Position numbers and translations under genes: made by a program
In this document: positions 23,772 through 59,562 of the stretch, piece after piece
Numbering within the stretch: position 1 is the stretch's first letter
Layout: each line of letters starts with the position of its first letter
NCBI GenBank assembly: GCA_001464585.1
Contig: LNFF01000040.1
Location: 195,267 to 259,266, forward strand
Source of the DNA: Gammaproteobacteria bacterium Ga0077554
GTDB lineage: Bacteria; Pseudomonadota; Gammaproteobacteria; Ga0077554; Ga007554
DNA: 64,000 nt
Direction: 5' to 3'
The notes under the pieces: generated by a model
The model's input: only the letters and a program-made list of their open reading frames with translations
What the model was told of the DNA's origin: nothing
Database searches by the model: none

Positions 23772-25793
23772 TTAGGGGACGGGTGGGGCTTGGACGGGCT
23801 CTGAACGCGGCTTGGGATCAACAACGGGGGCGGGCTCTTCGCCGATAGGCAGCATCAGCCTGGAGAGCGACACGGGTTCGCCGCCTAGACGATATTGATA
23901 GATGATGGTAAAGGCCATGACGCGGCGCACGTAGTCGCGGGTTTCTTTGAAGGGGATATTTTCCACCCATAATTCTGCGGATATCGCATCACCTGTGGTC
24001 GGCATCCACTGCCGCACACGCCCGACACCGGCATTATAGGCGGCGGTGGCCAGCACCGAATTAGCGGCGAAACGGTCTAGCCCAGTACGCAAATAGGCGG
24101 AGCCTAAGCGCACGTTCACTTCTGGCAAGAGTAAGTTGTCGATATTCTTCAGTTTCATTTTTAACCCTTTGGCGACCATGCGCGCGGTGGCGGGCATGAG
24201 CTGCATCAAGCCCAGCGCGCCCACCGGGGAACGCGCGTCGGTCATGAAGGCGCTTTCCTGACGCATAATCGCAAAAGCCCAGGCAGGATCAATGGCGCTG
24301 TCTTTGGCGCGCAACTCCACATGCTCACGGTGATCGAGCGGGAACAATAATTCCAGGTCATCCTGTCGTGGCGCCTGGGCGATGGTGAAGATGGCGCCGT
24401 CGCGCCAACCCCAGTCATGCGCCAGTTTGGCGGCGCGCAGCTTGAGGTTTTCGTCGAAATCCTGGATGGCGTAATTCCATTCCCGTCGGGTGTCCGTCAA
24501 ACGCCCCAGTATATAAAATTCACGGGCGCGCGCAATGCCGGGCAGTTGCTCTATCACCGCCATTTCTTCGGCGGTAACCAGCAACGGACGATGCGTAAGG
24601 GTATAGGGTTGGCCGAGCCGATCGGCGGCAAGAAAGCCGTAATAATCACGCCCTATCAGGCGGGTGTAGAGGGCGGCGGCCTCCTCAGGAAAATCCAGTT
24701 GCTCAAGCGCGCGCGCCTGCCAGTAACGCCAGCGTGATGAGGCCTGTTCTTCGATGCTGAGTTGCGAAATCCAGGTGAGCACCGCACTCCAGTCGCCGCT
24801 GTTCATGGCCAGCAACACGCGCCGTTCGCGCACGCGCTGATCTTCTTCGCTACGATCTAAAGCCCCCAGCCAGACGCTGGCCTGCGGCTCATTCTGGGTC
24901 GCAAGCGCCAGGGCGAGGTTGCGATTCACAGCGGTGATGTGCGCTGCCGTGAACGGTTGTGTGGCGCGCAGGGTTTGCCATACATTAACGGCACCCGCCG
25001 CATCATTTAAGGCCAGACGCTTGATCCCATACGCAAGAATGTTCGGGAGCTGGGGGTGTTGCAGGTTAAATGCAGGAAGCGTTTTAACGCGTTCCGGGCG
25101 TTGCCGCAACTCCAGCCACCAACCCGCCCACAACTGATCCGCAGGCGGCAAAAGGTGGCTCAGCTCCCGCGCCAGATCGAGTTGTCCCGCCTCTATAGCC
25201 AACCCCAGGCGCCGCCACACCAATTCATCACTCAAGCCGCCGTCTTTGCGCCACGCCTCAAATACGCTATCGCACACCGCCGATAAAGATTGCCCGGTGA
25301 GCCACACGGCATCCAGATCGGTAAAAGCGTCAGTGGTATTATCGGTATTTATGAGGGCGCGGCGATACAGGCATTGCATTTCAGCGCTGTTATCACCCCC
25401 GCCACCCATGCCATTCACGGGTTGGTAAGCATCAACAAAATCCTGCCAACGATCTTGCTCCACCAGCGTGCGCAACCACGCATCGTGCAAGCGCCACGCC
25501 AGCGGCGAATCCGCGTAGGCCCATAAAAACCCATACACCTCATCTGTGGGTGCTGTATCAAGACGGGGATGCAACTCCTGATACAACAGATAAGGATACA
25601 GCGGATAGTCTGCCAGTTTTTTTAGCAGGCGCTGAAATTCGGGGGGGTTGTTTTGCTTCAAAGCCTGCTCGGCCGCTACAAAGTCCAGACGCTGTTGTGC
25701 CAGATCAGCCCCGTCTTCGGCAAGGGCGGCGACTGAGGCCGTGCTGACCCATAGAGCCCACCATAAAATAATAATTCTCGCCCCGAAGAGCAT
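23772..25793 (-). CDS. slt: Soluble lytic murein transglycosylase
   Basis: About 673 aa. The ATG at 25793 with AAGG upstream gives a normal signal peptide (ending near ASVAALA), so it is preferred over a longer frame. A large superhelical domain fills the N-terminal 430 residues. A SLT lysozyme-like domain follows with catalytic E in FAIMRQESAFMTDARSPVGA, the LMQLMPATA motif and the AYNAGVGRVRQW segment. It cleaves peptidoglycan glycan strands in the periplasm. The C-terminus ends in a Pro-rich tail not found in E. coli Slt70. Confidence 0.94.
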   Translation of the reverse strand: MLFGARIIILWWALWVSTASVAALAEDGADLAQQRLDFVAAEQALKQNNPPEFQRLLKKLADYPLYPYLLYQELHPRLDTAPTDEVYGFLWAYADSPLAWRLHDAWLRTLVEQDRWQDFVDAYQPVNGMGGGGDNSAEMQCLYRRALINTDNTTDAFTDLDAVWLTGQSLSAVCDSVFEAWRKDGGLSDELVWRRLGLAIEAGQLDLARELSHLLPPADQLWAGWWLELRQRPERVKTLPAFNLQHPQLPNILAYGIKRLALNDAAGAVNVWQTLRATQPFTAAHITAVNRNLALALATQNEPQASVWLGALDRSEEDQRVRERRVLLAMNSGDWSAVLTWISQLSIEEQASSRWRYWQARALEQLDFPEEAAALYTRLIGRDYYGFLAADRLGQPYTLTHRPLLVTAEEMAVIEQLPGIARAREFYILGRLTDTRREWNYAIQDFDENLKLRAAKLAHDWGWRDGAIFTIAQAPRQDDLELLFPLDHREHVELRAKDSAIDPAWAFAIMRQESAFMTDARSPVGALGLMQLMPATARMVAKGLKMKLKNIDNLLLPEVNVRLGSAYLRTGLDRFAANSVLATAAYNAGVGRVRQWMPTTGDAISAELWVENIPFKETRDYVRRVMAFTIIYQYRLGGEPVSLSRLMLPIGEEPAPVVDPKPRSEPVQAPPVP

Positions 25794-25906
25794 ACTGCTT
25801 ACCTTTTTGCGGAATTGTTGCGGATACTGGTTATCGGCACGCAGGTGCGTCACTCATGATAGGATTAACAAACATCCTATTATAAACCATTATTTAGGTG
25901 CCTCTT

Positions 25907-26023
25907 ATGCCCACCTGCCCACTCTGCACCCCTGAACACGAAACGCTCTTGTGGCAAGACAACAACTGCCGCATTATCCGGGTGATCTACCAGACGCATG
26001 CAAAAGAAATATCGGACTTGAGT
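25907..26023 (+). pseudogene. Decayed duplicate of the HIT gene 5' end
   Basis: The first 117 bases copy the start of the intact HIT gene at 27331. MPTCPLCTPEHET and WQDNNCRII are shared almost exactly, but a 33-base in-frame segment (encoding LVPDVHYGGFC in the intact gene) is missing. Homology stops after the SDL codons. Read through, the frame ends in unrelated residues without the HxHxH motif. It is therefore a fragment and not a working gene. It marks the left edge of a 1.3-kb insert holding two membrane-protein genes. Confidence 0.85.
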
Positions 26024-26218
26024 CAATACAATAGCAGCATCCTTGAAAAAGGGTGGCGCCACCTTTTCCCGCGCTTAACTTTGGCCATTCACTACGCACT
26101 CCCTGCTTTAATGTCGTCCAATAAACAATTTTGTTGCATCAGTAAGCGTTTAGTCGGTATGATAAATTCATTTCACACTCAATATCCGTGAACAATATGT
26201 CGATATAAGAAGTTAATA

Positions 26219-26665
26219 ATGGCACACCGTAGTGAAAGAAAAAAACCGAAATCTCTCGAGGAGAACGAATATCGACTCAAGCGGTGGTACGTTGTGGTTC
26301 CTGCGGTTGCGAAAATCATCTCGGAGGGATGTAAGTGGTTTGCTATTCTTGGGATCGTTTACTTCGTTGCTGACGCTGTTAAGCCCTTTGCGGGTAAAGT
26401 AACATTAACGGATATCAACGCTAGTGTGGACGCATTCGGTCTCAAAAATCTGGGGGAAGCCCTTAAGAACTGCATAACGGTGGGCGTGCTCGGACTGATG
26501 GTTGGCACCGGAGGAATCCTCTATGGGCGGCGCGAATCCCGCTTACGGCGGGACGCTGTCGAGCGTCTACATTATTACCAGCTCAAATGGGAGCAGCACA
26601 TCGACCCGAAGCGCACATCTAGTACTCTCACACCCACGGGTGATACCCGGCCGGAGGATCAGTAA
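26219..26665 (+). CDS. Two-helix membrane protein of unknown function (pair, first gene)
   Basis: A 148-aa protein with a very basic N-terminus (HRSERKKPKSLEEN), two membrane helices (about residues 37-60 and 85-104) and a charged C-terminal tail. I do not recognise the family. Its stop TAA overlaps the next start ATG by one base (TAATG), so the two proteins are made together. Base composition is more AT-rich than in neighbours, which with the flanking HIT duplication suggests acquisition by transfer. Confidence 0.6.
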   Translation: MAHRSERKKPKSLEENEYRLKRWYVVVPAVAKIISEGCKWFAILGIVYFVADAVKPFAGKVTLTDINASVDAFGLKNLGEALKNCITVGVLGLMVGTGGILYGRRESRLRRDAVERLHYYQLKWEQHIDPKRTSSTLTPTGDTRPEDQ

Positions 26666-27228
26666 TGGAAATATTAGCAAACATTTTTGTTAATGGGCTG
26701 TTGCTATTCGTATTGTGGTGGCTTTTTTTTGTGGAATATAAGCGCTATCGCTGTGATCGGACTCGTCAAGAGTTATTTAAAATTCGCGACCAACTCTTCC
26801 AAAAAGCAGCTGATGGGGTTCTGCCATTTGATTCGAAAGCATATTGCCTGACACGTACGACGTTGAATGGCATGATACGCTTTGCACATGAAGTTTCCTT
26901 CATCCGTCTGTTGCTTGGTTTCTGGCTTCATACGTCAATCCACGACAGGGATGCAAAACGTTACCTTGAGGACATGAGCCAAGCATTAAATGATTTACCG
27001 GAGCCTGGCCGTACAGCCGTCAAGGAGGCGCGCTCTAAGATGCACCTCATCATTATTTCACACGTCATTCACACTTCCCTAGCGCTGCTGATTCTCTTAA
27101 AACCCTTCCTATACTATTTGCGATTGGTTCATAAATTAAGCTTCTATCAAAATAAGGCAGAAACGAGATTGGCTCCTTTGGACGCCGAAGCACGTCATGT
27201 CGGCAATAGCATTTGCCCCGCACACTAA
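26665..27228 (+). CDS. Membrane protein of unknown function (pair, second gene)
   Basis: A 187-aa protein with an N-terminal helix (about residues 4-24), a basic segment KRYRCDRTRQE, a hydrophobic stretch near residues 78-92 and a strong C-terminal helix (about residues 128-152). No catalytic motif was seen. Start-stop overlap couples it to the gene before. Such tightly coupled small membrane pairs on a transferred segment can be envelope, immunity or phage-defence modules, but nothing in the sequence decides this. Confidence 0.6.
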   Translation: MEILANIFVNGLLLFVLWWLFFVEYKRYRCDRTRQELFKIRDQLFQKAADGVLPFDSKAYCLTRTTLNGMIRFAHEVSFIRLLLGFWLHTSIHDRDAKRYLEDMSQALNDLPEPGRTAVKEARSKMHLIIISHVIHTSLALLILLKPFLYYLRLVHKLSFYQNKAETRLAPLDAEARHVGNSICPAH

Positions 27229-27330
27229 TTCCTCCATGGGGATTTATAAACAGAGCACAGCCTATTGCTGAGATGCGGCAAAATTGTAAACTATTTGCCA
27301 TCCTTAAGTTTAGGTAAAATCCAGCCTATT

Positions 27331-27750
27331 ATGCCCACCTGCCCCCTCTGCACCCCTGAACACGAAACCATCCTGTGGCAAGACACCAACTGCCGCATTA
27401 TACTGGTGCCTGATGTGCATTACGGTGGATTTTGCCGGGTGATCTGGAAGGTGCATGTAAAAGAAATGTCGGACCTGGGCGCGAAACAACGGCAGCACTT
27501 CATGGCGGTGGTGTTTGGCGTGGAGGAGGTGTTGCGTGAAACCCTGCGGCCGGACAAGATCAACCTCGCGTCACTGGGCAATCAGGTGCCGCATCTGCAC
27601 TGGCATGTGATTCCACGTTTTGCCGACGATGCCCACTTTCCTGATCCCATATGGGCGACAGCGCAGCGTACCGGGCAGACGCACGCTGTAGACCCGGTAG
27701 TACTTATGCAACGACTCAGCATGCGGTTAGGGGAACCTTTGCAAGGATGA
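27331..27750 (+). CDS. HIT family hydrolase
   Basis: A 139-aa HIT protein with the histidine triad HLHWHVIPRF and an N-terminal CPLC pair that may bind zinc. HIT enzymes hydrolyse or transfer nucleotides from AMP-type conjugates. The ATG at 27331 is set by the family start MPTCPLC and by the homologous start of the duplicate at 25907. The gene is complete and appears functional. Its 5' part exists twice in this window. Confidence 0.92.
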   Translation: MPTCPLCTPEHETILWQDTNCRIILVPDVHYGGFCRVIWKVHVKEMSDLGAKQRQHFMAVVFGVEEVLRETLRPDKINLASLGNQVPHLHWHVIPRFADDAHFPDPIWATAQRTGQTHAVDPVVLMQRLSMRLGEPLQG

Positions 27751-27913: not shown

Positions 27914-28297
27914 TTAATGCAGGGTGCGCGGTATGGTCAAAGTAAACGCCGGTATTTCAGCGTCAAAGTGGGTGCCGTTATCGGCGATCATTTGATACGA
28001 GCCTTGCATGGTGCCCACCGGGGTTTCGAGAATCGCGCCGCTGGTGTATTGAAACTCCTCGCCGGGACGCAAATAGGGCTGCTCGCCTACCACGCCTTCG
28101 CCGCGCACTTCCTGAATTTTGCCGTTAGCGTCGGTAATCACCCAGTGGCGGGTGATCAGTTTGGCGGGTAGTTTGCCGTCGTTGCGAATTGTAATCCGGT
28201 AAGCGAAGACATACTGTCCACGCTCAGGTAGCGATTGTTCTTCAACGAAAAAAGCTTCCGCCTGCACCTTTACATCATGATCTGGACTGTTATTCAT
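27914..28297 (-). CDS. apaG: ApaG (DUF525) protein
   Basis: A 127-aa immunoglobulin-like-fold protein with the family signature segments YVFAYRITIRNDG, ITRHWVITDANG, VVGEQPYLRPGEEFQYTSG and MQGSYQMIADNG. ApaG is linked to cobalt/magnesium resistance in enterics, but its biochemical role is unclear. The ATG at 28297 is used. A GTG directly precedes it. No ksgA/apaH neighbours are present here, unlike in E. coli. Confidence 0.94.
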   Translation of the reverse strand: MNNSPDHDVKVQAEAFFVEEQSLPERGQYVFAYRITIRNDGKLPAKLITRHWVITDANGKIQEVRGEGVVGEQPYLRPGEEFQYTSGAILETPVGTMQGSYQMIADNGTHFDAEIPAFTLTIPRTLH

Positions 28298-28360
28298 CAC
28301 TACTCATCCCACTTGGTATGGCACACAACGTTCGGAGCCTGCTAAGATAGCGGCTATAAG

Positions 28361-59207: not shown

Positions 59208-59438
59208 TTACATTGCTACTGGCGCGGCTTTTTTCTTGGAAGCAGCCTTTTTCTTGGGGGCTGCTTTCTTCTTGGATACAGCCTTCTTCTTCGGGGCTGC
59301 GGCCTTCTTCTTTGAAGCTACCTTCTTTGAAGCTACTTTTTTCGAAGCTACCTTCTTGGTAACAGCCTTCTTCTTGCTGACGGCTACCTTTTTCTTTGAA
59401 GCTACTTTCTTCTTTGCAACTGCTTTCTTTAAAGCCAT
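59208..59438 (-). CDS. Histone H1-like lysine/alanine-rich protein
   Basis: A 76-aa protein made almost only of Lys, Ala, Ser, Val and Pro in KKKA-, VASK- and AAPK-type repeats. This composition matches eukaryotic histone H1 tails and bacterial H1-like proteins (Hc1, AlgP), which bind and compact DNA. GGAG precedes the ATG. It is alone on its transcript, with a strong terminator. Confidence 0.85.
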   Translation of the reverse strand: MALKKAVAKKKVASKKKVAVSKKKAVTKKVASKKVASKKVASKKKAAAPKKKAVSKKKAAPKKKAASKKKAAPVAM

Positions 59439-59562
59439 GGTTTACTCCTCCATATGTGAAATGCACATTTGCCCAACTGGGATGGGCGCGGTTAAGTATA
59501 ACTAACTTTCAAAATACTTCTAGTCTTAACGAAAGTTATATCGTCAAGCGATTCCGATTACT

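What the first reader, a model, noticed from the sequence alone, without database searches (positions are those of the whole stretch)
25907..27750. HIT gene 5' end duplicated around a two-gene membrane-protein insert
The first 117 bases of the HIT gene occur twice, 1.42 kb apart. The left copy is decayed (33-base deletion), and the right copy is joined to the intact gene. Between them lie two AT-rich, TAATG-coupled membrane-protein genes. This looks like an insertion that replaced the 5' end of its target gene, as integrative elements do at tRNA genes, but no integrase is present.
Basis: partly seen in the sequence, partly recalled or inferred. Interest (0 to 1): 0.7.

Follow-up and report, generated by a model that had tools for sequence, protein, structure and literature searches.

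The report
Phage-type gene pair inserted beside HIT
A small two-gene membrane-protein module of a kind also carried by bacterial viruses was added next to a housekeeping gene, and the duplicated start of that gene is most likely the ordinary recombination scar of its arrival; the module itself is an undescribed relative of a known anti-virus system.

Summary
In detail: the promoter region and 5' end of HIT occur twice, 1.42 kb apart (88.6% identical over 114 aligned coding bases); the left copy lacks 33 bases, the right copy is intact. Seven relatives of the same family each have one HIT gene and no second fragment; in G001, G003 and G006 the transglycosylase lies directly beside HIT (the empty site). 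So the insert was gained in the window's lineage. The inserted pair (m1-m2) recurs in scattered bacteria and in phage contigs, there in moron positions (Mu-like head operon; next to a CI repressor). m2 is a remote homologue of PADLOC's '1TM-TIR' protein, taken to be the 1TM part of the 2TM-1TM-TIR defence system. No TIR gene is nearby, and no TIR_2 match exists in this genome. None of 13 other loci with the pair has a flanking repeat, so the HIT duplication belongs to this one event. Single-crossover integration of circularised DNA is known to give this layout, with duplications of 109-950 bp and no integrase; an integrase in trans is not excluded. Function (exclusion or abortive defence) is inferred, not shown.

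The parts
23772..25853 (-). SLT-type lytic transglycosylase gene, left ancestral neighbour of HIT
   Evidence: Adjacent to HIT in G001, G003 and G006 by tblastn; name from sequence reading, not from a family search
25879..25906 (+). Remnant of the HIT upstream (promoter) region, left copy, shortened
   Evidence: Aligns with R upstream with gaps; the spacer on this side aligns with that of G001, 0 of 1000 shuffles reach the score
25907..26040 (+). Decayed 5' end of HIT (left copy), 33-nt deletion between 25977 and 25978; frame stays open to 26191
26041..26218 (+). Insert, spacer upstream of the pair (about 39% GC)
   Evidence: No similarity to the HIT locus of relatives; composition
26219..26665 (+). 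m1: small membrane protein (two hydrophobic stretches), conserved C-terminal motif D-x-x-R-[ST]-[ST]-S-x-L-x-x-x-G
   Evidence: phrog_27816 E 8e-21; alignments; hydropathy
26665..27228 (+). m2: membrane protein related to PADLOC 1TM-TIR; invariant R34, F38, R41, F45, N68 in 19 relatives
   Evidence: phrog_13156 E 1e-31; PDLC02977 E 9e-7; alignment; predicted fold pLDDT 86.5
27229..27280 (+). Spacer between m2 and the right HIT upstream region; the right junction lies here
   Evidence: Inference
27281..27330 (+). HIT upstream region, right copy, with 29 nt matching G001
   Evidence: 0 of 1000 shuffles reach the score
27331..27750 (+). Intact HIT-domain gene (139 aa)
   Evidence: PF01230 E 1e-17; 81% identical to G001
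27914..28300 (-). ApaG-type gene, right ancestral neighbour of HIT
   Evidence: Kept beside HIT in G001, G002, G004; name from sequence reading

Best explanation
A horizontally acquired two-gene membrane module (m1-m2), of a type carried as a moron by temperate phages, was added between the transglycosylase gene and HIT in the window's lineage. Shown: the empty site in relatives, the derived insert, the pair's recurrence in phage contigs and in unrelated bacteria. Inferred: the module arrived linked to a stretch of HIT promoter plus 5' coding DNA and entered by one RecA-type crossover (circularised fragment, Campbell-type), which by geometry leaves one truncated HIT start on the transglycosylase side and one complete HIT gene on the other. 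The left copy then decayed. Inferred function: m1 and m2 form a membrane complex that blocks or aborts infection by other phages (superinfection exclusion or defence effector), like the membrane parts of 2TM-1TM-TIR but without a TIR partner.
For: All 8 genomes held of the family have HIT; only this one has a second fragment. G001, G003 and G006 have the transglycosylase gene next to HIT and no insert. The left copy is joined to the ancestral left flank and the right copy to the ancestral right flank, both with HIT upstream sequence. E. coli precedent: 56 of 60 integrants screened for illegitimate integration were instead single crossovers with a duplication of part of the target gene, 109-950 bp in 14 sequenced clones (PMC3240628). 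No integrase in the window; no flanking repeats at 13 other loci. Phage contigs: L059 after a Mu F-like head gene, L060 directly after a CI repressor and before a LydA-type holin (Pfam; contexts). 13 of 19 m2 relatives match PDLC02977 at 1e-3 or better. Defence-type neighbours: type I restriction R gene (L022), PDC-M05A (L019), PDC-M33A (L024), ShosTA (Leptospira, L043). Purifying selection on both genes in L031 versus L059: dN/dS about 0.13 and 0.11.
Against: No donor molecule or conspecific genome was seen, so the crossover is inferred from geometry and precedent; an integrase supplied in trans or a long staggered-break duplication gives the same layout. Derived changes lie on both copies (about 6 in L, 3-4 in R), which does not say which copy is foreign. 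The PADLOC match is weak (9e-7) and m1 matches no defence model. The contexts were chosen by homology, without a matched control for how often small genes sit near defence genes. No function was tested.
Confidence: 0.5

Rival explanations
1. Site-specific integration: the pair is the remainder (or a non-autonomous passenger) of an element whose attP carried a replacement HIT promoter and N-terminus, as SXT does at prfC and dusA-specific elements at dusA.
For: Same geometry; [quoted passage not shown] PMC2791158). The genome has 7 tyrosine recombinase-like genes elsewhere, some of them probably housekeeping.
Against: No integrase in the window; dusA elements have 21-bp imperfect repeats, here the homology extends over about 160-216 nt at 89%; no repeat at 13 other sites; no other element at HIT in the family.
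Confidence: 0.17
2. Insertion with duplication of a long staggered break (a target-site duplication made by repair, with foreign DNA captured in the gap).
For: L and R could have been identical at birth; L now shows decay (about 6 derived changes and deletions).
Against: About 160-216 nt is far beyond usual transposase duplications (general knowledge); R also carries derived changes at otherwise conserved sites; no transposase was seen beside the pair.
Confidence: 0.15
3. Plain tandem duplication of the HIT start, followed later by an independent insertion of m1-m2 between the two copies.
For: Cannot be excluded from one genome.
Against: Needs two independent events, the second exactly between the copies; no relative with the bare duplication is held.
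Confidence: 0.1
4. Assembly artefact (strains merged at the HIT repeat).
For: Draft genome of 44 contigs; no reads available.
Against: The copies differ by 11% plus indels; both insert junctions lie outside identical repeat; the longest identical run between copies is about 23 nt (read), short for an assembler join; the region is internal to a 317-kb contig.
Confidence: 0.04

Closest known systems
2TM-1TM-TIR anti-phage system (P2-like phage AC1; PADLOC PDLC02977)
   Same: m2 is homologous to the 1TM-TIR model over most of its length; the preceding gene is a small protein with two hydrophobic stretches; phage-borne
   Different: No TIR gene beside the window pair and no TIR_2 match in this genome; the m1 family matches no PADLOC model. 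That PDLC02977 is the 1TM part of AC1's system rests on its name and my own knowledge of PADLOC/DefenseFinder; AC1's sequence was not compared
Single-crossover (Campbell) integrants with partial target-gene duplication, E. coli lacZ (PMC3240628)
   Same: Foreign DNA bordered by two copies of a 109-950 bp part of the target gene
   Different: Laboratory plasmid; here natural, old and partly decayed, donor unknown
SXT at prfC and dusA-specific integrative elements (PMC8409611)
   Same: The 5' end of a housekeeping gene is supplied anew beside an insert
   Different: Those encode an integrase and recur at one site; here neither was found
Phage morons (PHROG families 13156 and 27816)
   Same: Both window proteins fall in phage protein families of unknown function
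   Different: The window copy lies in the chromosome between housekeeping genes

Membership tests
2TM-1TM-TIR defence system | 1TM component | tested here: met
   PDLC02977 E 9.1e-7, residues 32-159; 13 of 19 family members at 1e-3 or better
2TM-1TM-TIR defence system | 2TM component | tested here: inconclusive
   m1 has two hydrophobic stretches and precedes m2, but 0 of 16 m1 proteins match any PADLOC model at 0.01
2TM-1TM-TIR defence system | TIR-domain protein in the operon | tested here: not met
   Neighbours are the transglycosylase gene and HIT; no TIR_2 (PF13676) match in the genome
2TM-1TM-TIR defence system | Protects against phage | not testable with these tools
   Needs plaque assays
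Integrase-driven integrative element | Integrase encoded at the element | tested here: not met
   No PF00589 match in the window; the nearest on the contig lies about 98 kb before the window starts
Integrase-driven integrative element | Same target used repeatedly, or repeats at each copy | tested here: not met
   13 other loci without flanking repeats, two of them with a flank under 500 nt; no element at HIT in relatives
Integrase-driven integrative element | Target gene restored | tested here: met
   HIT ORF intact, 139 aa
Single-crossover integrant | Insert flanked by direct copies of target DNA, each joined to its ancestral flank | tested here: met
Single-crossover integrant | Donor molecule carrying the same target segment | not testable with these tools
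   No conspecific genome or donor held
Phage moron | Same genes found inserted among phage genes | tested here: met
   L031, L057-L060; m2 not found in 50,697 GenBank phage records by tblastn

The most novel reading that the evidence does not exclude
m1-m2 is a self-sufficient, TIR-less two-gene membrane defence or exclusion system spread by phages across several phyla, with its own trigger in the conserved m1 C-terminal motif, and it passes between chromosomes as a bare cassette of about 1.2 kb.
Probability: 0.25. Interest if true: 0.6.

Novelty: new variant of a known kind. Interest (0 to 1): 0.36.

Why it matters
The duplication is a readable scar showing how a very small cargo can enter a chromosome without an integrase while leaving the neighbouring gene working. 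The pair is a ready candidate for a minimal phage-borne exclusion or defence module related to 2TM-1TM-TIR, and would show whether such membrane proteins can act without a TIR signal.

Tried and rejected
Other insertion sites as further cases of target restoration: rejected, no flanking repeats; the apparent truncation of a prmC-like gene beside the pair in G150 is a frameshift with the rest of the frame still present, not an interruption. The maeB-mdh slot in G087: relatives have other content there, so no clean empty site. m1 as a relative of DUF2335 (partner of the m2 relative in Leptospira): no similarity by hhalign. Solved structures and fold search for m2: nothing significant. The m1 model is too weak to interpret (mean pLDDT 67). 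A wider scan of viral contigs with the 19-row alignment was not possible. GenBank phages by protein: no match.

Full report
Observation. The coding start and part of the upstream region of a HIT-domain gene (PF01230) occur at about 25879-26040 and again at about 27283-27498. Coding identity is 88.6% over 114 aligned bases; the left copy lacks 33 bases that correspond to right-copy 27402-27434. The alignment score (66) is far above the shuffle maximum (12), and apart from one tandem array no other direct repeat of this size within 10 kb exists in the window.

History. Eight genomes of the family are held, the window's own included; each has HIT, and only the window genome has a second fragment. 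In G001 (same genus) and in G003 and G006 (same family) the transglycosylase gene lies directly beside HIT on the other strand, with no insert. In G002 and G004 the HIT-ApaG side is kept but another gene lies upstream of HIT, so this border has been broken more than once. In the window the left copy is joined to the ancestral left neighbour and the right copy to the remainder of HIT and to ApaG. The left spacer aligns with the G001 spacer, and 29 bases upstream of the right copy match G001 as well (each 0 of 1000 shuffles). Left and right resemble each other (88.6%) more than either resembles G001 or G002 (79-81%). At the sites where they differ I count about six derived changes on the left and three or four on the right, by parsimony on the columns listed. 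The insertion is therefore younger than the split from these two species, unless one copy came from a close relative.

Mechanism of insertion. Two copies of a target segment around foreign DNA, one complete with the gene and one cut, is the product of a single crossover between the chromosome and a circle that carries that segment. In E. coli, when integrants were screened for illegitimate integration of linear DNA, 56 of 60 clones instead had a duplication of part of the target gene, 109-950 bp in 14 sequenced cases, ascribed to single crossover of a circular molecule that had lost some target sequence (PMC3240628). The window shows about 160 to 216 bp. This is my preferred reading, by geometry and precedent only. 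Integrases that renew the 5' end of a gene are known for prfC and dusA, but no integrase domain lies in the window, the genome holds no third copy of the HIT start, and 13 other loci with the pair have no flanking repeat (in two of them one flank was shorter than 500 nt).

The pair. m1 (148 aa) and m2 (187 aa) match PHROG families of unknown function at 8e-21 and 1e-31 and no Pfam or NCBIfam family in a meaningful way. They recur together in gammaproteobacteria and in Nitrospira, acidobacterial and Burkholderiales assemblies, and m2 is found at low frequency: 9 of 369 genomes of the class, 4 of 398 of the phylum sample. In viral contigs they lie after a Mu F-like head gene (L059; L031 similar), directly after a CI repressor and ahead of a LydA-type holin (L060), between what I read as terminase and gpW/portal genes (L058), and beside what I read as a tyrosine integrase (L057) (Pfam for L059 and L060). 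Both genes are under purifying selection between two such phage contigs. Leptospira replicons carry an m2 relative with a DUF2335 partner in place of m1, close to ShosTA. Other copies lie beside a type I restriction gene, a PDC-M05A gene and a PDC-M33A gene. These are counts of what was seen, with no matched control.

Function. m2 matches the PADLOC model 1TM-TIR, as do 13 of 19 family members. The paper on P2-like phage AC1 describes a TIR protein with associated transmembrane proteins; the cloned three genes protect E. coli C. The link from that system to this PADLOC model is by name and my own knowledge. There is no TIR gene beside the window pair and no TIR_2 match in the genome. I therefore propose, without test, a TIR-less membrane exclusion or abortive module. 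m2 is predicted with good confidence as an all-helical protein and has no significant structural match.

Verdict. The insertion is real and derived; the duplication is most likely an ordinary recombination scar; the pair is the more interesting part.

Noticed in passing
G087 C47 (L023 3219-4487), with L064 and L065: The gap between malic enzyme and malate dehydrogenase holds m1-m2 in G087, a glutaredoxin-like ORF in G751 and an unrelated 289-aa ORF in G211: a small variable slot between housekeeping genes.
   Followed up: partly
G002 (L026) and G004 (L027), upstream of HIT: The gene upstream of HIT is not the transglycosylase in these two relatives although HIT-ApaG is kept, so the HIT upstream border has been rearranged more than once.
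   Followed up: partly
window 59227-59445: Imperfect tandem repeat that reads as a lysine/alanine-rich (histone-like) tail on the minus strand.
   Followed up: no
window 26050-26070: 12-base palindrome GGTGGCGCCACC between A and T runs, just inside the left junction of the insert; possible terminator or joint.
   Followed up: no
L043 6442-7546 and L068-L078: In Leptospira replicons the m2 relative is preceded by a DUF2335 protein instead of m1 and followed closely by ShosTA (annotation read for L043 only).
   Followed up: partly
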